This document shows, piece after piece, positions 1 through 37,266 of a stretch of 37,266 nt of DNA. Each line of letters begins with the position of its first letter. Positions within the stretch are counted from its first letter, which is position 1. The stretch spans positions 1-37,266 of IMG/VR virus record IMGVR_UViG_3300032116_000614; one strand, given 5' to 3'. Position numbers and translations under genes: made by a program. The notes beneath the pieces were generated by a model. It was not told the origin of the DNA and made no database searches. It worked only from the letters and a program-made list of their open reading frames with translations. Origin of the DNA: a virus.

Positions 1-13
1 CGAACGAACGACC
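1..13. repeat. Terminal direct repeat, left copy (putative cos overhang)
   Basis: The first 13 bases, CGAACGAACGACC, are identical to the last 13 bases of the window (37254-37266). Seen directly. The repeat is too short for a usual assembler k-mer overlap, and it lies about 150 bp upstream of the terminase small-subunit gene, where lambda-like phages carry cosN. Inference: filled-in cohesive ends of a cos phage, or a trimmed circular overlap. Confidence 0.6.
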
Positions 14-40
14 CACACGAGTTGAACGCGGAAGGACCCG

Positions 41-730
41 TTACTTCGCGGTTGACAGCGCACGTTCAAGTGCGGCTTCAAGTTGCGTGACCCAGTTGCG
101 GTTGATCACCTTGCTGCCTACGTCTTGGATTGGGAAGCGTCCGGTGTAGCGCGGTGCTGATGATGCTGCGACGAAGTAAGGGAATAGTTGATCGCGTGAC
201 CGACGGTAGATACCAGGCGGCCTATCACCTCCGCGTGGTGTGCCAACAAAGAAGCCGCCGCGTTTGTTGGTGGTGCTCAGCCCTTTACTGATCGAGCGCA
301 GCGTTGCAATGGAGACGTTGCCTTGGGCTGTGGTCTTGACCAGGGAGGTGGGTAGGAGGGTGACCCCTGGGGGGAGGGTGCCGTCGTTGTCAGCGCCAGC
401 GAAGAAGCGCTCGAAGCCCTTGGCTACACGCTGACCACCTTGGATGCCATAGCGCAGGTAGCGGGCACGGTTGCGGCCGTCTTGGTTGTTGGCAAAGACG
501 ATGGCTTGGAGGTCTGCCTTCTTGGACTTCTGAACTAGGAAGGCGGTCTCGGTGAACTTGGTAGGTGCGTTGAAGTATTGGCGCGTGCTGCCATTGAGCG
601 CTGTGCGGGCCTTGAAGGCCACCTCGTTGAGGGCGAGGGAGGCGGCAAAGGGCAACTGCTTGGCGAGCACCCTGGAGCGCCTTGCTGCCTCTTCTAGGCC
701 GGTGGTGTCAACGGTGATGGATAGGGCCAT
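41..730 (-). CDS. Probable minor tail / virion morphogenesis protein
   Basis: A protein of 229 aa. The open frame runs further upstream, to 823, but that extension crosses the repeated GTCTCA element and reads as non-coding, so I use the ATG at 730 (protein begins MALSITVDTTGL). It starts with a short beta-like segment, then an Ala/Leu/Arg-rich helix that resembles HK97 gp10-like or minor tail proteins acting on the head-tail or tail region. There is no catalytic motif. It is the last gene before the putative cos end when the genome is read on the minus strand, separate from the main tail cluster but in the same orientation. The structural role is inferred from its looks and orientation only. 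Confidence 0.6.
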   Translation of the reverse strand: MALSITVDTTGLEEAARRSRVLAKQLPFAASLALNEVAFKARTALNGSTRQYFNAPTKFTETAFLVQKSKKADLQAIVFANNQDGRNRARYLRYGIQGGQRVAKGFERFFAGADNDGTLPPGVTLLPTSLVKTTAQGNVSIATLRSISKGLSTTNKRGGFFVGTPRGGDRPPGIYRRSRDQLFPYFVAASSAPRYTGRFPIQDVGSKVINRNWVTQLEAALERALSTAK

Positions 731-774
731 GCCCCAAGGGTAGGAGGCGGACGCCAGAGGTAGGCAAATCGGCT

Positions 775-808
775 GTCTCACGTGTCTCATTTGAGACAGG
801 TTTGAGAC
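775..808. promoter_or_regulatory. Four-half-site GTCTCA/TGAGAC element, copy A
   Basis: Half-sites: GTCTCA at 775-780 and 784-789, TGAGAC at 792-797 and 803-808. The central pair forms GTCTCATTTGAGAC, and the same 14-mer occurs at 37173-37186 in copy B. A wider inverted repeat, GAGGTAGGCA at 757-766 against TGCCTACCTC at 828-837, brackets the element. It lies 45-78 bp upstream of the start at 730, a fitting place for an operator or activator site for that gene. No clear -35/-10 pair is visible. The protein that binds it is unknown. Confidence 0.6.
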
Positions 809-843
809 TTGCCAACCTGCCAACCTCTGCCTACCTCCCTATA

Positions 844-957: not shown

Positions 958-985
958 TTGCCTACCTCAGCCGGGAGGTAGGCAA
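958..985. terminator. Perfect 11-bp hairpin at the end of the primase gene
   Basis: TTGCCTACCTC (958-968) pairs perfectly with GAGGTAGGCAA (975-985) around a 6-base loop. It covers the last codons and the TGA (967-969) of the primase gene. No U-run follows in the minus direction, so it is not a textbook rho-independent terminator. It could limit transcription, protect the 3' end, or be a protein site: the same stem sequence recurs at 757-767 and 828-837. Confidence 0.45.
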
Positions 986-2997
986 TAGACCCATTTTTGG
1001 GTGCCATCGATCAGGCGGCGTCGTTTGATCAGTCCAAGCTCCCTGAGGATGGAGGCGAGCTGCATCTGGTCCGCACGAGACTGGCGCTCGATGGGCTTTC
1101 CGATGGCATCAGTGAGCAAAACCTCTGTGGTGACTGGGATTCCAGCGTTTCGGGGTGATGCCAACCACTCTCTAACCGGTGCAAGCCAAGGAGATTCAAC
1201 GAGGTAGGCAAGGTTGGCATCTGCCACTTGGCGCTCAAGGTCGCGGGGCAGGTGATTGGGTTCGCCGGCTTTGTATGCGGCGACCGCTGCAGACCAGATC
1301 GCGTCGCGTTCGAGGAGCAAGCCATCCACTTCGATCATTCCCTGTACGTCCACAGGAATGACCCAGAAGCGGCGGTTACCGGTGTCATCGATCAGGAAGC
1401 CGGTGTCGCGGTTGGTGGAGCCGACGATGATCGAGCGGCGCGGGAAGTCCTCCATCGCCTTGCCGTAGGGCACGCGATAGGAATCGGTCTGGCGGGATAA
1501 GAAGGCTTTGATCTTGCCGGCGTGGTTCTTGCCAGTGATGCGGTCGATCTCCCCCCACTCATGGATCCAGGCTTTACCGACCAGGAGTAGGTCGTCTTTG
1601 TTGTTGATATCGCCTAAGGCATCAGAGAAGAACGGGCCGCCGAGGTTGCGCCAGAACGTGGACTTACCGCAGCCTTGGGTGCCCATGAGGACGCAGGCGG
1701 CGTCGTGCTTGCTGCCGGGTTCGTAGATGCGGCGGACGGCTGCGATCAGCGTGCAGCGCAGCATGGCGTCGTAAAGGGTGCCGGGCTGGTCCTGCGGGCG
1801 CAGGTAGCTGCTGGCAAGGTGATCGATGGATGCTGGTGGCACCTCGTCGGCCACGCGGTCTAGGTAGTCGCGGACTGGATCGAACTGGTTTTCTTTGGCG
1901 ACGAACACCAAGGCATCAGCGGCCAGCTCCTTGCCGACCTTGATATTGAGCTGAGCCAGCTGCAGGTAATAGTGCTCTAGGTCTGTGATGGCCTTGCCGT
2001 CTAGCTCTACCGCTTGGGTGTAGATGTTGAAGCGCAGGCGGTCGGTTAGTTGCTGGCGCAGCAGGGTAAGCAGCTCGCCTGTTTCAAGCTTGATAGGTTT
2101 GGCCGCGCCAGCTGACTGGGCAACATCAGGGCCGAGGACGGACTGAAGTGCCTTGATGGCCTGCTGACGTGGCGAGATGCCACCGGCTAGGTGATAGAGG
2201 GTGCCGAGGCCAACGCCGCCTGTATCAGAATTGAAGGATGCCCATTTGGCTTCACATTCGCCGGGCTTGAACTTTCCAGATGCTGCAGACCACTGGCACC
2301 AGTCGGCTAAGAGTGCGTCATTGCCGACGCTGTGGAGTGCCATGCCGACCTTGACCCATTCGTCGTAGTCATCAGCGATGGAGCTAGGGATGTTGGCGAG
2401 GTACTGGCGGGCGCGTTCCGTGTCGTCGGTGGTGTTGGTATGCAGCAGGGGCGGCGTTTCGATAGGCCGTTGCATCTGCTGCAGGAGCACAGATGGAGCA
2501 TCTGCGATGGGCAGATCACCAGGTGCGCGGCCATTCAGCCAGCGGTAGGAGCCAGTGATGGGGTGCTTGCCGATGACAACGGACTGGCAGCCGGTCCACC
2601 GCAGTTCGAGTTGCTCGCCCTTGATGCTGCTGCGGAGCTTAGTGGTTTTGATCTGATCCCAGAACGGTTCAGGTACGCGGTAGATGATTTGTAGGCGGCC
2701 ATCACGGCCTGAGGTGACGGCCCATGATTTGGGCAGTTCGCGCAGTGATGTGCCGAGAGATTCGAGCACCTCTGAAGCGCCGAGGCCATCGTGATCAACG
2801 AACAGGAGGCCACCGGATGGTGGGCCGGCTAGGACGCCAACGGCGACAGCGCGACCTGCTGATAGCTCGGATTCAATGCCTCGTTTGTTAAGGGGGTGCT
2901 TCTGCCATTCGGGTTGGTAGGGGCGCTTGTCGTTGCCGACTGCCACCAAGGCCCATGAGTCGGGTATGTCTTGCAGCTGATCGACGATGGTTACCAC
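967..2997 (-). CDS. Prim-Pol primase fused to VapE-type SF3-like helicase
   Basis: 676 aa. The N-terminal part (about 1-180) matches bifunctional DNA primase/polymerase folds: FVDHD at 66-70 gives the paired acidic residues D68/D70, and IGKHPITGSY (142-151) holds the conserved His. Next comes a PriCT-2-like segment (about 193-272, with YDEWVKVGMAL and CEAKWASF). The C-terminal half is a virulence-associated-E (VapE) P-loop ATPase: Walker A GTQGCGKST at 439-447, Walker B-like KAWIHEWGEID at 475-485 and GSTNRD at 526-531. The likely job is to start and unwind DNA at the phage origin. It is the last gene of the minus-strand early operon and is followed by the dyad- and tract-rich intergenic region. 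No phage DNA polymerase accompanies it. Confidence 0.92.
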   Translation of the reverse strand: MVTIVDQLQDIPDSWALVAVGNDKRPYQPEWQKHPLNKRGIESELSAGRAVAVGVLAGPPSGGLLFVDHDGLGASEVLESLGTSLRELPKSWAVTSGRDGRLQIIYRVPEPFWDQIKTTKLRSSIKGEQLELRWTGCQSVVIGKHPITGSYRWLNGRAPGDLPIADAPSVLLQQMQRPIETPPLLHTNTTDDTERARQYLANIPSSIADDYDEWVKVGMALHSVGNDALLADWCQWSAASGKFKPGECEAKWASFNSDTGGVGLGTLYHLAGGISPRQQAIKALQSVLGPDVAQSAGAAKPIKLETGELLTLLRQQLTDRLRFNIYTQAVELDGKAITDLEHYYLQLAQLNIKVGKELAADALVFVAKENQFDPVRDYLDRVADEVPPASIDHLASSYLRPQDQPGTLYDAMLRCTLIAAVRRIYEPGSKHDAACVLMGTQGCGKSTFWRNLGGPFFSDALGDINNKDDLLLVGKAWIHEWGEIDRITGKNHAGKIKAFLSRQTDSYRVPYGKAMEDFPRRSIIVGSTNRDTGFLIDDTGNRRFWVIPVDVQGMIEVDGLLLERDAIWSAAVAAYKAGEPNHLPRDLERQVADANLAYLVESPWLAPVREWLASPRNAGIPVTTEVLLTDAIGKPIERQSRADQMQLASILRELGLIKRRRLIDGTQKWVYCLPPG

Positions 2998-9566: not shown

Positions 9567-10218
9567 CCCAACCACAGCACTCACAACCACCACCCCATCT
9601 GGGTCGGTGTTTAGCGGCATTCAAGCCTTTGAAGACGCCCAGCGGATTGCCAAGGCCCTGGCCAGCAGCACCCTGATCCCGCCTCAGTTTCAGGGGCAGC
9701 AGGGCTTTGCCAACTGCCTTGTGGCTTTGGAGATTGCCAACCGGATGGGCATCAGCCCGTTTTTGGCGATGCAACACCTGCACGTGATTCACGGCCGCCC
9801 CAGCTGGTCAAGCAGCTTCATCATTGCGATGGTGAATGGCTGCGGCCGGTTCAGCCCATTGCGGTTTGAGATCAGCGGCACTGGCGACAGCCTGGCCTGT
9901 TATGCGGTCGCCACTGACCTTGCCAGCCAGCAGGAATTGAAAGGCCCAACGATCACGATGGCGATGGCCAAGCGTGAAGGATGGGCTACCAAAAGCGGCA
10001 GCAAGTGGGCCACCATGCCTGAGCTGATGATTCGTTACCGGGCCGCGGCTTTTTGGGGCCGGTTATATGCGAGCGATTTGCTGCTCGGGATGCAGAGCCA
10101 AGAGGAGGTGCTCGACGTGCAGCCGGTCACAGTGACCGAAACCAGCGTGGCTGATTTGAACGCCAAGCTGCAGCCCGAAACTCCAGTTGCCGCAACCGAT
10201 CAGGATGAACTCTTCTGA
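9559..10218 (+). CDS. RecT-like single-strand annealing protein
   Basis: 219 aa. The core follows the RecT-type phage recombinase pattern: AFEDAQRIAKALASSTLIPP, ALEIANRMGISPFLAMQHL, HGRPSWSSSFIIAMVN, MAKREGW and MPELMIRYRAAAFWGRLYA. Such proteins coat single strands made by a RecE-type exonuclease and anneal them to homologous DNA, supporting phage replication and concatemer formation. The C-terminus (after about 185) is a low-complexity acidic tail ending DQDELF, which could dock on partner proteins or SSB. The gene overlaps its neighbours on both sides. It is shorter than E. coli RecT (269 aa) but within the range of phage relatives. Confidence 0.85.
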   Translation: MTDPTTALTTTTPSGSVFSGIQAFEDAQRIAKALASSTLIPPQFQGQQGFANCLVALEIANRMGISPFLAMQHLHVIHGRPSWSSSFIIAMVNGCGRFSPLRFEISGTGDSLACYAVATDLASQQELKGPTITMAMAKREGWATKSGSKWATMPELMIRYRAAAFWGRLYASDLLLGMQSQEEVLDVQPVTVTETSVADLNAKLQPETPVAATDQDELF

Positions 10219-10396
10219 TTACTTAACGGCCACGCAGTTAGCGCAGCGCTGGGGCCTGCACCCTGACACGCTTAGCCGCTGGCGAAAGGCTGGCAAAGGC
10301 CCGCCGTACTTCCGCACCCCAGGCTTCGTGCTCTACCCCTTGGCCGAGGTGGAGCAATACGAACAGGCCAACACCATTACCCACGAGCAACCATGA
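10205..10396 (+). CDS. Small helix-turn-helix DNA-binding protein
   Basis: 63 aa from the ATG at 10205; a start at 10187 is possible, but the protein proper begins at MNSSDYLTATQLAQRWG. It is a MerR/excisionase-type winged helix: YLTATQLAQRWGLHPDTLSRWRKAGKGPPYFRTPGFVLYPLAEVEQ is the HTH followed by the wing. Proteins of this size act as excisionases, small repressors or DNA-binding accessory factors. No integrase is present, so excision is unlikely; regulation of early genes is a better guess. It overlaps RecT (14 nt) and SSB (ATGA). Confidence 0.75.
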   Translation: MNSSDYLTATQLAQRWGLHPDTLSRWRKAGKGPPYFRTPGFVLYPLAEVEQYEQANTITHEQP

Positions 10397-12667: not shown

Positions 12668-12930
12668 ACGCCACACAGCTTGACCAGCAACGCGCCGATA
12701 TGATCGACGCGCTGTACGAACGCAGTGGCCGCACGTGCGGCACCTACACCGGGCTGTGGGAAGAATTCTGCCGCGATATCGCGGCCAACTTCCGCGACAC
12801 GGATTACACCGAACTCCTGGCCCGCGTTGTTCGTGCCATGGATGCCACTGAATCGGTGATGACGCAGAAGCAAGCGCAGCAGGCCATTGAGGTGTGCCGC
12901 CAGCAGCTGCTGGGAGATAAGTGGAGGTGA
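12664..12930 (+). CDS. Hypothetical helical protein
   Basis: 88 aa, coupled to the previous gene by ATGA. It reads MNATQLDQQRADMIDALYERSGR, then CGTYTGLWEEFCRDIAANF and DYTELLARVVRAMDATESVM, ending in a Gln/Arg-rich helix. It has three Cys, but not in a zinc-site pattern. No family recognised. Confidence 0.6.
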   Translation: MNATQLDQQRADMIDALYERSGRTCGTYTGLWEEFCRDIAANFRDTDYTELLARVVRAMDATESVMTQKQAQQAIEVCRQQLLGDKWR

Positions 12931-13115
12931 GCCGGCCATTCAAGGCTGGCGAGGAGAACATCGCCGCGATCCTCACGCCGGAGCTGGTGCGCAAGCTGCG
13001 CCGGCTCCGCACCAAGGGGTGGAGCTACCGGCAGCTGGCAGCTGAGTTTGACGTAGACGAGAAGCACGCATGGCGCATCTGCAAACGCATTGCATGGGGA
13101 TGGCTTGATGACTGA
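12921..13115 (+). CDS. Small HTH protein (sigma-4/transposase-like helix-turn-helix)
   Basis: 64 aa from a GTG at 12921 (GGGAG upstream); GTG at 12927, overlapping the previous stop, is an equal candidate. The segment LTPELVRKLRRLRTKGWSYRQLAAEFDVDEKHAWRICKRIAW is a clear helix-turn-helix of the Homeodomain-like/sigma-70 region 4 type. It is probably a DNA-binding regulator. It could be one of the proteins that reads the palindromic elements in this genome, but nothing in the sequence proves that. Confidence 0.7.
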   Translation: MEVSRPFKAGEENIAAILTPELVRKLRRLRTKGWSYRQLAAEFDVDEKHAWRICKRIAWGWLDD

Positions 13116-14805: not shown

Positions 14806-14901
14806 GCGCCGCTTGGCATACGGTAGCGGTCGCGACTGCGTCTCATGAGACTGCAGAATTGCTACGGGATTCGGCGGCAGGATTCGCGCTACTGTCCCGC
14901 C

Positions 14902-30684: not shown

Positions 30685-32574
30685 TCAGAGGGAATCGTTG
30701 CCGCGGCTGAAGGATTCAGGGTGGCGAACGGCGATGTCCACATCCTGCATCGCAACCACGCGGACGGTGCCGGAGGTGCTGTGGGTGTAGGGGTCAACCA
30801 TTAGATCCAGGCCAGAGAAGTAGCCAATGATCAGATCAGCAAAGTTGCCGAACCACAGATCACCAGATTCAACTTGGTTGGACAGCACACCTTGGTAGCC
30901 GTTCACTTCGTTGCCTTCCATAACGAACAGGCCGGAACCTGCGTCCTTGGCTTTGGTCTTGAGGCCGCCGCGCATTGCAGCGTTCATCAGGTAGACGGGG
31001 CTGCCGAGCAGTGCGTTGGCGGTTGCCACGTCGCTCTCCAGTGCCACCACCTCAGCGAAGGTGGGGATTGCAGCGGCGAAGTTCTCGGTGCCGATGCCGG
31101 TGGTCAGCTTCAGGCCGAGGGGCTCACCGTTGGAGCCAGTGCCGTAGAGGCCAGCCAGGTCGATCTTGAGTGCCAGCACACGGGCCAGATCGCTGCGCAC
31201 CATGTTCTCCACGTCGATAGACGACTGGATCATCAGGCGGCGGCTGTAGTCGGTGAAGGCCGCAACAGTCTTAGGGGTCAGGCTGACCTGATCCACAGTC
31301 TGCTGGCTCTCGGTAGGCGAGCCGGATTCAGCCACCCAGTAAGCGGTACCAGCGCCGGACTGGCGGGGGATGGCAACGTTGCCGGTCAGGCCGGTCAGCA
31401 CGGTGGCGCCAGCTTGATCCAGAGCGGATGCATTGCGCAGCAGATCAATGAAGCTGCCAGCGTCCAGATCAGTAGCAACCAGGTTGCCGCCAGCGGTAGC
31501 AGCGCCAACGGTCAGGTCGCGACGCAGCACATCCTGGGGAATGGTGATACCGCGGGACTGACGGCCGAGCTTTGCAGCAGCAGCATCAGATGCTTCGATC
31601 TCGAATGCAGCAGCATCACGAGCCGAGCGATCAGTGGGATTGGCCAAGTAGTTGATGGCACGCAGGAAGGAGAAGCTGCGGCTCTCCTTTTCAGTAAGGC
31701 CGATTTCAGCGGCGCTCATGTTCACAGGCTCCTGTTTGATGTCGAGTTTGTCGAGCACAGCAGCGCGAGCCTCGTCGATAGAACGACCAGACTCAACCAG
31801 CTGGCGGCCGAGATCGGCCATGTTGTGCTTGTCGCACAGTGCAGAAATGCCAGCGATGCGGGAGCGCTCAGCCTCAGCGGCTTCGGCCCGCACCACGGCC
31901 AGATCGGTGGTGGAGTTTTCCATTACAGGAATGGGATCAGGTGTAGGTGCTGCCGAGGCAGCGGACTCGGCCTCAAGAGCTCGGCCAATGCCGACGCCGG
32001 GATCAGCCGGCACCGACACAACCGAAACCTCATAAGGAGACCAGGCAGTAGCAACAAAGTCGCCGCTGCCGCGTTCCTCCATTTTGTCAATGGAGTAACC
32101 AAAGGAGACGTTTCGTAGAACGCCATCCTTCACATCGCTCAAGACTTCCTGAGCGAATGGGTTGCGGCTGAACCGCACTCGAGCGTAACCGCGTCGTTTT
32201 TTGCCATCGATATAGGCGCGTTCAACAACACCGATCACGCGATCAGGGTTGTGGTTGAACAGCAGCGGTGCGCCATCGTTCAAGCGGCTAAGATCAGCAG
32301 CCTTGGCGTCATGGCTCAGGATCTCATTGCCGAAGTAACGGGCAACAGGAAACTCAGAGCTAAACGGAAACTCGTAGGTGCGATCCTCAACCTCATCAAA
32401 GGTTGTGAGCTCTGCACGCTGGTGGCGACCAAGGCCAGGCATTGCCCGCTCTTCTTCTACGGCCTCAACCTCTACTGTCTCTTCAGTTTCGATCACTTCA
32501 GGATCGGGCAGTTGCGCCTCTTCCATTTTTCTACCCTGCAATGCCTTAATTGTATCCGGCTCAATCGATGCCAT
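30685..32574 (-). CDS. Fused prohead protease and HK97 major capsid protein
   Basis: 629 aa in one frame. About 45-200 is an HK97-type prohead protease (S78/U35 family): LLFNHNPDRVIG with His108, RNVSFGYS with Ser157 and SPYEVSVVSVPADP with Glu182 fit the catalytic triad. A middle helical part (about 205-290, AVVRAEAAEAERSRI..DIKQEPVNMSAAE) is the scaffold/delta type. From about 290 is an HK97-type capsid protein: GGNLVATDLDAGSFIDLLRNASALDQAG, NVAIPRQSGAGTAYWVAESGSPTESQ, LIIGYFSGLDLMVDPYTH. The fusion means each capsid subunit carries its own protease and must be cut apart in maturation. It overlaps the portal stop (TGATG). Confidence 0.92.
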   Translation of the reverse strand: MASIEPDTIKALQGRKMEEAQLPDPEVIETEETVEVEAVEEERAMPGLGRHQRAELTTFDEVEDRTYEFPFSSEFPVARYFGNEILSHDAKAADLSRLNDGAPLLFNHNPDRVIGVVERAYIDGKKRRGYARVRFSRNPFAQEVLSDVKDGVLRNVSFGYSIDKMEERGSGDFVATAWSPYEVSVVSVPADPGVGIGRALEAESAASAAPTPDPIPVMENSTTDLAVVRAEAAEAERSRIAGISALCDKHNMADLGRQLVESGRSIDEARAAVLDKLDIKQEPVNMSAAEIGLTEKESRSFSFLRAINYLANPTDRSARDAAAFEIEASDAAAAKLGRQSRGITIPQDVLRRDLTVGAATAGGNLVATDLDAGSFIDLLRNASALDQAGATVLTGLTGNVAIPRQSGAGTAYWVAESGSPTESQQTVDQVSLTPKTVAAFTDYSRRLMIQSSIDVENMVRSDLARVLALKIDLAGLYGTGSNGEPLGLKLTTGIGTENFAAAIPTFAEVVALESDVATANALLGSPVYLMNAAMRGGLKTKAKDAGSGLFVMEGNEVNGYQGVLSNQVESGDLWFGNFADLIIGYFSGLDLMVDPYTHSTSGTVRVVAMQDVDIAVRHPESFSRGNDSL

Positions 32575-34154
32575 CAGTCCTCAGGCCCTTCAGTGGGATC
32601 CTTGAGAACTGACTCCTCTTCGTACTCCTCCTCTTTTATCGGCGATTCCGTATCCTCAAATGCCGGCTGGGCGCCCATCGTCACAGCAGGCTGCGAACCG
32701 CCGCCAGCGTTCACCTCACTCGGATCGGTGTCAAGCACGATATCCATCTCATCCAACATCGCCAGTTCCGCCTGACGTGCGACCAGCACATCATCAAGAT
32801 CACCGCCCTGCTCAGCGATCACCTGGCCCAGCGTCTTGAAGCCACATCGCACCGCGGTCTTGTAGGCATCCACCTCACGCTGCGGATCCACCCACTCCCA
32901 GCTACGTGGCACCCACCGGCTGGCGCGGTAGCGATCAGGATTGGTCTCATAGCCAGGCAGGTTCAGCGTGCCGCTCAGCACGGCCATGTCAAGCCATGCC
33001 TCAAACACCTGCTGATGGAAGTTCTCCACCATGTAGCGCTGCAGCACGCGGTACGTATCGCGCTCTTCCAGCAGGCTCAGCCGGCTGCTGCTGTAGTTGC
33101 TCTCTGAAAAGTTCTTGCTGATGCTCTCGAACGAGACGCCAACGCCAGCCGCCACAGCACGCAGCATCGAACGCGTGAACGGTTCCAGCTGCCCATCAGG
33201 TGCGTTCAGATCCGGCACCGATACTGACTCACCAGGGGCCAGATACTTGAACACACCGGGAGTGAACTCGCTCACCCGGTCGCCCTCGTAAACCTCATCA
33301 CCGATCAGCTCGCCCTCAGGACTGCTGATGAAGCCCATCAGCGCCGAACTTGCACGAGCACGCACCACCTCCGCCTCTTCGTAGCCCTGCAGCATGTGCA
33401 GCCGCATCAGCGCTGACGCGAACCAGGTGACCCCTCGTGTCTGGCCGGGGCGTTCAGGGAGGAAAAGATGAAGGACCTCATCAGCCGGCACGCGCACACG
33501 TTTGCCATTCGTGCGCGGGTTGCCCGCATAGGTGTCACCCGGATGGTTGGCGTAGAAGTGATAAGCCTGCGGCCGCAGATAGCCATCCACTTCAATGCCC
33601 ATCCGCACCGTGTTGCCATCCTTGGCTTGCGGTACATCGTCGTCGATCAGGTAATCCGCCTCCAGCACCTGCAACGCGAATGGCACTTTGCTATCTCCGA
33701 ACGGCCGGCGAATCATCCGCACGAACACTTCGCCGCTTTCAGCCAGGCTGCGCACCAGCAGGCGCTCAATATCGTGGAAGCCGAGGATGCCGCTCACATC
33801 ACAACGGCTCTTGTGCATCCACTTCTCCCATGCCTCGTGGATCTGGCCATTGATGGCCTCATCCAATCGGCCACCACGCAGCATCCGCACCTGCCCCTGA
33901 TGGCGGATGCCATGACCGATCACGTTGTTCTGAATCGCCCGTAATGCCTGCCGCGCATAGTCGTTATCCCTGCACAGCTGACGCGCTCGATTGCGCAGCG
34001 CCTTAAAGCTGCTCTTGATCTCGCTGTCGGCACTGGTGCCGCTGGTCACCCAGTCAGCCGTCAGCCTACTAACGCGGGCACCTTGATACGCACGCCGCTG
34101 CGGCCGCACCGGCTCAAATCCCATCGCCCTGAATAGCCGCGTGCGCAATCCCAT
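32574..34154 (-). CDS. Portal protein (lambda family)
   Basis: 526 aa from the ATG at 34154 (TGATG overlap with the joiner gene). Lambda-type portal pattern: TADWVTSGTSADSEIKSSFKALRNRARQLCRDNDYARQALRAIQNNVIGHGI, VRSLAESGEVFVR, VLEADYL, RGVTWFASALMRLH and NFSESNYSSSRLSLLEERDTYR. It forms the ring through which DNA enters and leaves the head. The C-terminus is acidic (EEEYEEES...DPTEGPED), which is common near the crown region. Confidence 0.93.
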   Translation of the reverse strand: MGLRTRLFRAMGFEPVRPQRRAYQGARVSRLTADWVTSGTSADSEIKSSFKALRNRARQLCRDNDYARQALRAIQNNVIGHGIRHQGQVRMLRGGRLDEAINGQIHEAWEKWMHKSRCDVSGILGFHDIERLLVRSLAESGEVFVRMIRRPFGDSKVPFALQVLEADYLIDDDVPQAKDGNTVRMGIEVDGYLRPQAYHFYANHPGDTYAGNPRTNGKRVRVPADEVLHLFLPERPGQTRGVTWFASALMRLHMLQGYEEAEVVRARASSALMGFISSPEGELIGDEVYEGDRVSEFTPGVFKYLAPGESVSVPDLNAPDGQLEPFTRSMLRAVAAGVGVSFESISKNFSESNYSSSRLSLLEERDTYRVLQRYMVENFHQQVFEAWLDMAVLSGTLNLPGYETNPDRYRASRWVPRSWEWVDPQREVDAYKTAVRCGFKTLGQVIAEQGGDLDDVLVARQAELAMLDEMDIVLDTDPSEVNAGGGSQPAVTMGAQPAFEDTESPIKEEEYEEESVLKDPTEGPED

Positions 34155-34723: not shown

Positions 34724-36583
34724 CTACCAGTTGCTGACAAACGCAGACGGGGCGGCAGGCGCCGCTTTCTTCCTCGATCTTAGCGGTGCCTTCTTGCCTT
34801 CCTCTAACTGAACTCTCAACTGTTCCCACATCGTTGCCTGATTCATGCGACGCCCATAAAGCAACATCGCCGCATAGCCATACACCAAGCAATCCAACGC
34901 TTCGTTTCGATCTCCCGCTTTCTTTACCCACTCCCGAATCGGAAAGCCGCGGTGATATCGCAACGCCTGCCGTTCGCTGGTCACCTGCTTGAAGTACTCC
35001 GGGTCCGCAGCCATGCCGAAGTGGAGCCCGCCAGCCTGTTGGTTGTGACGCAGCCGACCGAACAGCGTCGTCTTAATCGTGTCGGTGCCCAGCTGATACA
35101 GCGTCACGCCACGTTTCAGCACCTTGCCACGCCAGTTCACATCCACCTTGCTGCCCTTGCCAACTGCAGCGCTGTTGCGCCGGCTGCTGCCCTTGATGGC
35201 AATCACACCCTGCCCCACGCGGTCGCGCACATACCGATACACCTCATGCGTGCAGTGGCCGCCAGAGTCCACCGCCATCTGCGCCACCTTCAAGGTCTTG
35301 CCGCTCTCCGTGTCCCACTCAGTCGCTAGCACCTGATCCAGTTGCCCCCATACCTCCGTCATTGTCGGGTCACCCATCAGCTCCTGATGCCATACCAGCC
35401 AGCCCGTCTCGCCCTCACCCCATCCCCATACACTCACAGCCAGCCGGTTGTCCTGCACGTCAACGCCAGCAGTCAGCAGCACCACGCCAGCAGGGCACAG
35501 CCCGCTCTTGTAATCCAGTCGCCGTTCCATCAGTCCATCGGCGCTGATCTTCGCCGCGTAGTCCTCCTCCCATGTCTCTGCCAGCCGCGTATTCACAAAC
35601 GCCTTCAACGCCGGCGCATCACCCTTGGCCCTCAAGAAATCCTCCACCAGCTGTTCCCAGCTGCACCAACCCAGCGGGCTATACAGACCGCTCAGCTGGA
35701 ACCCAGCAGTCCGACCATTGCCAGCCGGTGCCGTCGCACGCCACTCGCCACGCCGGAGCATCGCCGGCTTGTGCAGTTCCTCGAATCGCTCACCGCAGTG
35801 CTCGCACTGATATCGCGCAGTGTCCGGCCTGCCGTCATCCCACTTCAGTTGGCCCCACTTCAGCCACTCCATCGCGCCACAGCTCGGGCACGGCACATAG
35901 AACCGCCGTTGATCAGTCCGCAGATATTCCGCCTCGATCCGGCTGAAGTCCTTCACGGTCGGCGTGCTGGTCAACAGAATCTTGCGCCGCGCAAACGTCG
36001 TCGTTCGTCGCTCCGCCAGCGCCACCGGATCGCCCTCCCCGTCCACATCGCTCGGGAATCCGTCCACCTCATCGCAGAACAGATACCGACACGGCGCTGA
36101 TCGCAAGCCCGTCGCACTGTTCGCCCCAGTCAGCAGCATGATCCCGCCGCTGAACTCTTTGCTGAACATCGTGTTGCCAGAGTCCCGCGCCCGTGCCGGT
36201 GCGATCTTCTCCGCCAGGCACGGCGTCTCCGTGATCATGCTCTCAAGCCGCTGCTTGCTCAGCCGCTTCGCCATCTCCACCGTTGGCTGCACGCACAGCA
36301 TCGGCCCTGGCGCATGGTCGATCACATAGCCCAGCCAATTACTGCCGGCCTCCGTCTTGCCCGTCTGCGCCGCAAACATCATCACCACTCGCTGCACCGT
36401 GCTCTCGCTGCTCAGGCAATCCATCGGCTCACGCAGGTAAGGCGTCCGATCCGTGCGCCATGGGCCAGGCTCCGCACTCGCCTTGCTGCTCAGCCGGCGA
36501 TACCGATCCGCCCACTCGCTAACCGTCAGCGGCTGCTCAGGCCGCAGCCCATCCATGAAGCCATCGCGCCAAGCGTTAGCCAT
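34724..36583 (-). CDS. terL: Terminase large subunit (GpA family)
   Basis: 619 aa from the ATG at 36583 (ATGGCTAA overlap with TerS). GpA-type: Walker A AAQTGKT (71-77), Walker B YLFCDEVD (167-174), SAT-like LLTSTPTV (203-210), two zinc-binding pairs CPSCG (232-236) and CEHCG (260-264), then an RNase-H-type nuclease with TAGVDVQDNRLAVSVWGWG and VAQMAVDSGGHCTHEVY. It cuts concatemers at cos and pumps DNA into the portal. The cos-type lambda family fits the 13-bp end repeats. Confidence 0.95.
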   Translation of the reverse strand: MANAWRDGFMDGLRPEQPLTVSEWADRYRRLSSKASAEPGPWRTDRTPYLREPMDCLSSESTVQRVVMMFAAQTGKTEAGSNWLGYVIDHAPGPMLCVQPTVEMAKRLSKQRLESMITETPCLAEKIAPARARDSGNTMFSKEFSGGIMLLTGANSATGLRSAPCRYLFCDEVDGFPSDVDGEGDPVALAERRTTTFARRKILLTSTPTVKDFSRIEAEYLRTDQRRFYVPCPSCGAMEWLKWGQLKWDDGRPDTARYQCEHCGERFEELHKPAMLRRGEWRATAPAGNGRTAGFQLSGLYSPLGWCSWEQLVEDFLRAKGDAPALKAFVNTRLAETWEEDYAAKISADGLMERRLDYKSGLCPAGVVLLTAGVDVQDNRLAVSVWGWGEGETGWLVWHQELMGDPTMTEVWGQLDQVLATEWDTESGKTLKVAQMAVDSGGHCTHEVYRYVRDRVGQGVIAIKGSSRRNSAAVGKGSKVDVNWRGKVLKRGVTLYQLGTDTIKTTLFGRLRHNQQAGGLHFGMAADPEYFKQVTSERQALRYHRGFPIREWVKKAGDRNEALDCLVYGYAAMLLYGRRMNQATMWEQLRVQLEEGKKAPLRSRKKAAPAAPSAFVSNW

Positions 36584-37109
36584 CACACAGCTCCACCAGT
36601 GCACTGCGGTGCTCCTGCGTGAGCACCTGATGAATCACCGTCGGATCCGTCTCGCCAGCCAGCTGATGGCTCAAACGATCCGCCAAATTCGCCAATGCTT
36701 CCCGCACGCCGCGGCCAACCTTAAACGCCTCCTTCTTCACCTCCTCAGCTGGTACCAGCTCACCACGCTGCTGCGTCACCTGAAGCTTTGCCAGCTCCGC
36801 CTGATAGTGCTCACGCCTTGCCCTGCTCTCATTCAGGTCCGGAATCGCATCATCCGGCAATCCATTCACCCGACGCCGCAACTCATCCGCATCCCTCACC
36901 GGCTCCTCTACCGGATCTGGCCTGCTCACCTTGCTCACGCTGTTGGCAACCGTGTTCTTGTTCCACAGCTCAAGCGCCAGATCACGATCCAGCCAGCGCT
37001 TGCCATCCTTCACAACAACAGCGCCAGCGATCCTGCTCTTCGTCGCATGAGTTACAGCGCCCTTGCTGCACCCTCTGATCGCTGCAAACTCAGCGAACGT
37101 GACCAGCAC
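36576..37109 (-). CDS. terS: Terminase small subunit (Nu1-like)
   Basis: 177 aa. The start is a GTG at 37109 (no ATG nearby and no strong Shine-Dalgarno). N-terminal winged helix-turn-helix: TFAEFAAIRGCSKGAVTHATKSRIAGAVVVKDGKRWLDRDLA; then a linker and DLNESRARREHYQAELAKLQVTQQRGELV, the Nu1-type TerS segment, and a C-terminal helix AFKVGRGVREALANLADRLSHQLAGETD. It should bind cosB-type repeats upstream of its own gene. The four-half-site element at 37162-37197 lies exactly in that position. Confidence 0.87.
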   Translation of the reverse strand: MLVTFAEFAAIRGCSKGAVTHATKSRIAGAVVVKDGKRWLDRDLALELWNKNTVANSVSKVSRPDPVEEPVRDADELRRRVNGLPDDAIPDLNESRARREHYQAELAKLQVTQQRGELVPAEEVKKEAFKVGRGVREALANLADRLSHQLAGETDPTVIHQVLTQEHRSALVELCDG

Positions 37110-37123
37110 AAAGTTAAATCGAT

Positions 37124-37241
37124 CTAGCGTTAACTTAACTCCCGCTAAACCGCCCTAAACTGTCTCAAGGGAGTCTCATTTGAGACTCACGTGAGACTCC
37201 TTGCGCCGCAAGGGTTTAGGACGGTTGGGCGCTGACGCTAG
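37124..37241. promoter_or_regulatory. Nested dyads with four-half-site element, copy B (putative cosB/late control)
   Basis: Inner element: GTCTCA at 37162-37167 and 37173-37178, TGAGAC at 37181-37186 and 37192-37197; gaps 5, 2 and 5, fully symmetric. Middle arms: AACCGCCCTAAAC (37148-37160) against GTTTAGGACGGTT (37214-37226), 12 of 13 pairs. Outer arms: CTAGCGT (37124-37130) against ACGCTAG (37235-37241). All are centred near 37180-37187, between the end repeat and TerS. A terminase-binding or operator role is inferred. No other gene is seen in 37110-37266. Confidence 0.65.
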
Positions 37242-37253
37242 CGGAAGCGGGTG

Positions 37254-37266
37254 CGAACGAACGACC
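37254..37266. repeat. Terminal direct repeat, right copy (putative cos overhang)
   Basis: Identical to positions 1-13. In the minus-strand reading it is the first sequence upstream of the terminase genes. See the left copy. Confidence 0.6.

What the first reader, a model, noticed from the sequence alone, without database searches (positions are those of the whole stretch)
775..808. Two copies of a four-half-site GTCTCA/TGAGAC element bracket one gene across the genome ends
Copy A (775-808) and copy B (37162-37197) each have two GTCTCA followed by two TGAGAC, with the identical central 14-mer GTCTCATTTGAGAC. In a circular genome they flank only the gene at 41-730 and cos. This is too regular to be chance and suggests a tetrameric or paired-dimer DNA-binding protein controlling the late genes, or terminase binding.
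Basis: seen in the sequence. Interest (0 to 1): 0.75.

Follow-up and report, generated by a model that had tools for sequence, protein, structure and literature searches.

The report
Packaging-site array and origin-side array
Two nearly identical clusters of a six-letter DNA word lie on either side of one gene in a phage related to viruses of cyanobacteria; one is very probably the docking site of the DNA-packaging enzyme beside the cut ends of the genome, the other belongs to the hairpin behind the replication gene (possibly the replication origin), and relatives show that the two are inherited separately rather than working as a pair.

Summary
Copies A (775-808) and B (37162-37197) are the only places in the window where any 6-mer forms this four-half-site layout; 40 shuffles give none. 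The interpretation must be split. B lies 70-105 bp inside the physical left end of the virion DNA, between the cohesive end and terS, where lambda has cosB. Among 59 distinct terS upstreams from relatives, the array is kept only where the TerS recognition helix is of the VTHA[TS]KSRI type (26 of 42) and never where it is TVTAA[ST]KARI (0 of 16), so B is most likely the TerS docking site. A travels with the PrimPol gene: all 14 A-bearing phages form one PrimPol clade (100/99), and A ignores both the tail gene it precedes and the state of B. A sits at the tip of a 95-nt stem-loop 3' of primpol, like the proposed pRN1-type origin. The bracketing of one gene is therefore incidental. GTCTCA arrays also lie at the 3' ends of Prim-Pol genes in other replicons. 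By-products: a 13-nt cohesive end and a lambda-like cosQ. Binding and origin activity are untested; the GC-skew minimum falls at B, not A.

The parts
37162..37197 (-). Copy B: four-half-site array, proposed cosB (TerS docking site), bp 70-105 from the left virion end
37254..37266 (-). cosN, left-end copy of the 13-nt cohesive end GGTCGTTCGTTCG
1..13 (-). cosN, right-end copy of the same 13-mer (second copy explained by fill-in of the overhang)
33..39 (-). GGGTCCT, candidate cosQ, 19 bp before the nick (lambda has the same word 23 bp before its nick)
36576..37109 (-). terS, small terminase subunit with N-terminal winged HTH
34724..36604 (-). terL, large terminase subunit
775..808 (-). Copy A: four-half-site array at the tip of the stem-loop 3' of primpol
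745..839 (-). Stem-loop that carries A (z -6.1), candidate replication origin
811..839 (-). Short direct repeats (GGTTGGCA / GGTAGGCA), iteron-like, also present in phages without A
967..2997 (-). primpol: Prim-Pol + PriCT_2 + VapE-like helicase; its allele predicts the presence of A
41..730 (-). Minor tail protein gene lying between A and cos; its allele does not travel with A

Best explanation
A and B are two separate cis elements that use the same half-site word. B is cosB of a lambda-type cohesive-end site: TerS, through its N-terminal winged HTH, docks on the array GTCTCA-N5-GTCTCA-N2-TGAGAC-N5-TGAGAC just inside the left virion end and positions TerL to nick cosN (13-nt 5' overhang GGTCGTTCGTTCG), with GGGTCCT as cosQ. 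The central inverted pair, with its fixed 2-bp gap, would take one TerS dimer and the outer half-sites, at flexible spacing, the wHTHs of further subunits. A is part of the replication module: it lies at the tip of a stem-loop 3' of the PrimPol gene, most likely the replication origin or a control site on it, and stands beside the tail gene only because that module ends there. Shown: position, physical ends, sequence conservation, co-variation of B with TerS type, linkage of A to PrimPol. Inferred: protein binding, stoichiometry, nicking, origin activity.
For: B: it lies between the cohesive end and terS at bp 70-105, with terS starting at bp 158; contigs from different samples begin or end exactly at the same 13-mer. 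TerS is phrog_57 (E 3e-24) and its wHTH model matches known terminase DNA-binding domains first (6hn7 Z 7.9, 7lw0 7.3; lambda gpNu1 1j9i 6.2). The array, strict or one step off, is present in 26 of 42 distinct upstreams with H21-type TerS and in 0 of 16 with the TVTAA[ST]KARI type. The central gap is fixed at N2 while the outer spacers vary. A: all 14 A+ phages form one PrimPol clade at 100/99 with 10 A- outside; G001 has the tail gene at 95% identity without A, while G002 and G004 have A with a tail gene only 41% identical. Within A, 23 of 24 half-site columns are invariant against 4 of 10 spacer and 0 of 14 3'-flank columns. The strand folds into a 95-nt stem-loop (z -6.1), as reported 3' of the PrimPol-type gene of pRN1 and some phages (PMC4234260). 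GTCTCA arrays also lie in or just after the 3' ends of Prim-Pol genes in L010, L275, L261, L293 and L222.
Against: TerS with helix TKAAVTHASKSRI goes with strongly diverged B in some phages (L151, L154, L177), so the co-variation is not strict, and the helix type without the array is essentially one clade, about one event. The shared word in A and B is left to convergence or an unknown common binder. The GC-skew minimum is at 37166, at B rather than A, and near cos in several relatives, which does not favour A as origin. Related PrimPols without A have the GGTTGGCA repeats alone. The whole TerS model has low pTM (0.32) and no Foldseek match reaches E 0.001.
Confidence: 0.58

Rival explanations
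1. One protein, TerS, binds both arrays: B as cosB, and A as a second site at the replication module, coupling packaging or terminase level to replication or to transcription of the last tail gene.
For: Identical half-site word and N2-centred layout in A and B of the window and of L126. TerS of the TKAAVTHA type occurs with GTCTCA-type B sites in L168 and L187, so it could bind A in G002-G004 too.
Against: A and B do not co-vary: G002, G003, G004, L281 and L304 have A or an A-like array with a diverged or different cosB; L281 keeps most of A although its TerS is of the type that never has the array. G001 and G005 have no A.
Confidence: 0.18
2. Both arrays are operators: a phage or host regulator binds A and B and controls transcription of the tail gene and of the terS-led late operon.
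For: Both arrays lie 45-90 bp upstream of a start codon in the same orientation; inverted half-sites are typical of operators.
Against: No sigma-70-like promoter at either site. No phage gene tracks A or B except primpol and terS. Phages with a 95-97% identical tail gene lack A (G001, L136). The tail gene has the base composition of primpol, not of terS (third-position skew -0.47 against +0.50).
Confidence: 0.12
3. Both arrays are replication elements: the replication protein or a host replication factor binds GTCTCA at A and at B, and B marks the real origin at cos.
For: Cumulative GC skew has its minimum at 37166, in B, and near cos in several relatives. GTCTCA arrays recur at Prim-Pol genes elsewhere. 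B also lies in a stem-loop (z -6.0).
Against: B persists with very different PrimPols (G001 67%, G005 61% identical) and changes with TerS type. A change of transcription block at cos would also give the skew.
Confidence: 0.08

Closest known systems
Phage lambda cos site (cosQ-cosN-cosB, gpNu1/gpA)
   Same: Order cosQ, cosN, TerS-site array, terS, terL; 5' cohesive ends; cosQ word GGGTCCT; gpNu1-type wHTH; recognition helix and site differ together, as reported for lambda and 21 (PMC4669245)
   Different: 13-nt instead of 12-nt overhang; four 6-bp half-sites packed in 36 bp instead of R3, R2 and R1 spread over 120 bp with an IHF site between R3 and R2
Simple cosB of phage N15
   Same: TerS site near the left end without an IHF-dependent layout (PMC4669245)
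   Different: N15 has one critical R3 plus a remote inverted rR2 inside terS; here four half-sites are together before terS
pRN1-type replication origin (stem-loop 3' of a primase-polymerase/helicase gene)
   Same: Stem-loop of about 100 nt starting within 130 bp behind a Prim-Pol/helicase gene; also proposed for phages (PMC4234260)
   Different: Here the tip carries a four-half-site array and iteron-like repeats; origin activity untested; the helicase domain is VapE-like
Synechococcus siphoviruses S-CBS1, S-CBS3 and S-LBS1
   Same: Related terL (52%) or primpol; S-CBS1 and S-CBS3 share the order replication gene, minor tail gene, cos, terS, terL and a GGGTCC word at the end
   Different: S-CBS1 and S-CBS3 records lack the cosB segment, so the array cannot be tested; S-LBS1 is reported to package by headful (PMC6157547)

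Membership tests
lambda-type cos site | Defined physical ends with complementary 5' overhangs | tested here: met
   13-bp repeat at both ends of the window; 19 of 54 contigs near terS start exactly at GGTCGTTCG and L133, L135, L136, L137 and L140 end at the same 13-mer. The overhang itself is inferred from fill-in.
lambda-type cos site | cosQ word upstream of cosN | tested here: met
   GGGTCCT at 33-39, 19 bp from the nick; lambda 48473-48479, 23 bp. That this is lambda's cosQ is from general knowledge.
lambda-type cos site | TerS with gpNu1-type winged HTH | tested here: met
   phrog_57 E 3e-24; terminase DNA-binding domains rank first, Z 6.2-7.9, moderate support
lambda-type cos site | TerS binds repeated sites between cosN and terS | tested here: inconclusive
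   Sites present and co-varying with TerS type; binding itself not testable here
lambda-type complex cosB | Three R sites over about 120 bp with an IHF site between R3 and R2 | tested here: not met
   Four half-sites within 36 bp, largest gap 5 bp
pRN1-type PrimPol replicon | Primase-polymerase fused to a helicase with C-terminal winged helix | tested here: inconclusive
   Prim-Pol, PriCT_2 and VapE-like domains found; C-terminal winged helix not tested by structure
pRN1-type PrimPol replicon | Large stem-loop 3' of the replication gene | tested here: met
   745-839, z -6.1, starting 128 bp after the stop codon
pRN1-type PrimPol replicon | Stem-loop works as origin | tested here: inconclusive
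   GC-skew minimum at 37166, about 0.9 kb away on the circle; function not testable here
two-site late operator | Promoter at both sites | tested here: inconclusive
   No sigma-70-like promoter found; other promoter types are not covered by the scan
two-site late operator | A regulator inherited together with both sites | tested here: not met
   No gene present with both A and B across relatives; candidate HTH genes do not track them

The most novel reading that the evidence does not exclude
TerS itself, or one shared factor, binds both the cosB array and an array at the tip of the origin stem-loop, so that terminase occupancy at the origin switches the genome from replication to packaging.
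Probability: 0.15. Interest if true: 0.75.

Novelty: new variant of a known kind. Interest (0 to 1): 0.45.

Why it matters
It defines a probable complete cos site (cosQ, cosN, cosB) for a large group of metagenomic phages related to Synechococcus siphoviruses, and gives dozens of natural TerS/cosB pairs in which recognition helix and site can be compared. It also shows that contig ends in metagenomes can be true virion ends, and points to GTCTCA arrays at the 3' end of PrimPol replication genes as a candidate origin signature.

Tried and rejected
Rejected: chance; A and B as one functional pair bracketing a gene; an RNA hairpin as the selected feature of B, because in relatives one half-site changes without its partner (GTCTCA facing TAAGAC); regulation by the HTH proteins 10187-10396 and 12921-13115. 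Led nowhere: PDB sequence search with the TerS profile, papers containing the two words, promoter scans, S-CBS1 and S-CBS3 (records lack the cosB segment). Control scans with permuted half-sites gave 10, 3 and 22 contigs against 66 for GTCTCA (5, 3 and 17 families against 20). One control family (GCTTCA, up to 11 copies) also lies near a PrimPol-like gene, so PrimPol replicons use other words too, and the GTCTCA excess at PrimPol genes is suggestive only: the PrimPol queries were partly taken from the GTCTCA loci. A first conservation count had an indexing slip and was replaced.

Full report
What was checked. Copies A (775-808) and B (37162-37197) are exactly as described. GTCTCA as a word is at its chance frequency in the window, but the layout X-gap-X-N2-X'-gap-X' for any 6-mer exists only at A and B, and not once in 40 dinucleotide-preserving shuffles.

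What the phage is. The window is one whole virus record. TerL is 52% identical to Synechococcus siphoviruses S-CBS3 and S-CBS1, and the primpol DNA is about 70% identical to S-LBS1 over its matching parts. On the - strand the circular order is primpol, A, minor tail gene, cos, B, terS, terL, other late genes. Early genes on the + strand include an exonuclease and a RecT-like protein.

The window ends look like virion ends. The first and last 13 bases are the same. Contigs from different samples start exactly at GGTCGTTCG upstream of terS, or stop exactly after GGTCGTTCGTTCG behind the tail gene. This is what filled-in 13-nt 5' cohesive ends would give. GGGTCCT, found at a similar place in lambda, lies 19 bp before the nick.

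B is in the cosB position and follows TerS. It lies at bp 70-105 from the left end; terS starts at bp 158. In relatives the element is recognisable as [GA]TCT[CT]A twice followed by T[GA]AGA[CT] twice, with a constant central gap of 2 and variable outer gaps of about 3-7. Counting distinct upstreams, 26 of 42 with histidine 21 in the TerS helix carry the array (19 strict, 7 one step off), and none of 16 with the TVTAA[ST]KARI helix; one further row (L200) was out of register and is not counted. Those 16 are essentially one clade, so this is about one evolutionary event. The TerS N-terminus is predicted as a winged HTH with residues 16-24 as recognition helix, and its nearest solved structures include terminase DNA-binding domains and lambda gpNu1 (Z below 8, so supportive only). 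In lambda and 21 the recognition helix and the R sites differ together (PMC4669245).

A belongs to the replication module. In 24 phages compared, A or an A-like array is present in 14, and these form one PrimPol clade with 100/99 support. The tail gene next to A does not matter: 95% identical in G001, which lacks A, and only 41% in G002 and G004, which have it. In 12 phages (11 distinct sequences), 23 of 24 half-site columns are invariant, against 4 of 10 spacer columns and 0 of 14 columns on the 3' side; the 5' side is also conserved, 11 of 14. A sits at the tip of a 95-nt stem-loop (z -6.1) 3' of the gene, as proposed for pRN1 and some phages (PMC4234260). In relatives without A the same interval holds direct repeats such as GGTTGGCA. 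L267 and L304 have only three exact half-sites.

A and B are not a pair. A occurs with diverged B (G002, G003, G004) and with a quite different cosB (L281, whose A has one changed half-site); canonical-type B occurs without A (G005; G001 judged by its close relative L149, since its own contig is cut inside B). So the bracketing of one gene follows from the order of two modules.

Wider use of the word. A three-half-site pattern of GTCTCA gives 66 viral contigs in 20 families, against 10, 3 and 22 contigs in 5, 3 and 17 families for permuted words. Six of the 20 families are within 600 bp of a PrimPol-type or primase gene, against 1 of 25 control families; the queries were partly drawn from the GTCTCA loci, so this is exploratory. 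Prim-Pol domains were found in L010, L275, L261, L293 and, in a bacterial contig, L222.

What remains open. Why A and B share the word is not explained: convergence, TerS at both, or another common binder. The cumulative GC skew has its minimum at 37166, in B, and near cos in several relatives. This would fit an origin or a change of transcription block at cos, and does not favour A as the origin. No binding, packaging or replication was tested.

Noticed in passing
window 37166 and relatives G001, G003, G008, G012, G014: GC skew changes sign close to cos although genes on both sides run the same way (third-position skew -0.47 in the tail gene, +0.50 in terS).
   Followed up: partly
NC_015465 (S-CBS3) about 32713-32840; starts of NC_015465 and NC_016164 (S-CBS1): The S-CBS3 record seems to carry, just after its cos word, an inverted copy of its own stretch near 31900-32020; both records begin inside an unannotated terS and lack the cosB segment.
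   Followed up: partly
L010 90-290; L222 7076-7277: Dense arrays of about 13-14 GTCTCA/TGAGAC half-sites next to Prim-Pol/AAA_25 replication genes.
   Followed up: partly
L263 6572-7147 and relatives (L269, L270, L272, L280, L285, L290, L294, L295, L296, L303, L306): Up to 11 half-sites in and after the 3' end of a gene of about 190 aa; the two members tested had no PHROG match.
   Followed up: partly
L072 1103-1136, L125, L037, L282: The same kind of array (four half-sites in L072 and L125) in a different phage that carries ribonucleotide reductase-like genes.
   Followed up: no
window 37200-37212 and many relatives: A conserved palindrome CTTGCG[GC]CGCAAG lies just cos-side of B, and similar words flank other GTCTCA arrays.
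   Followed up: no
window 14840-14851: A gapless GTCTCATGAGAC palindrome overlaps the possible start codon at 14845.
   Followed up: no
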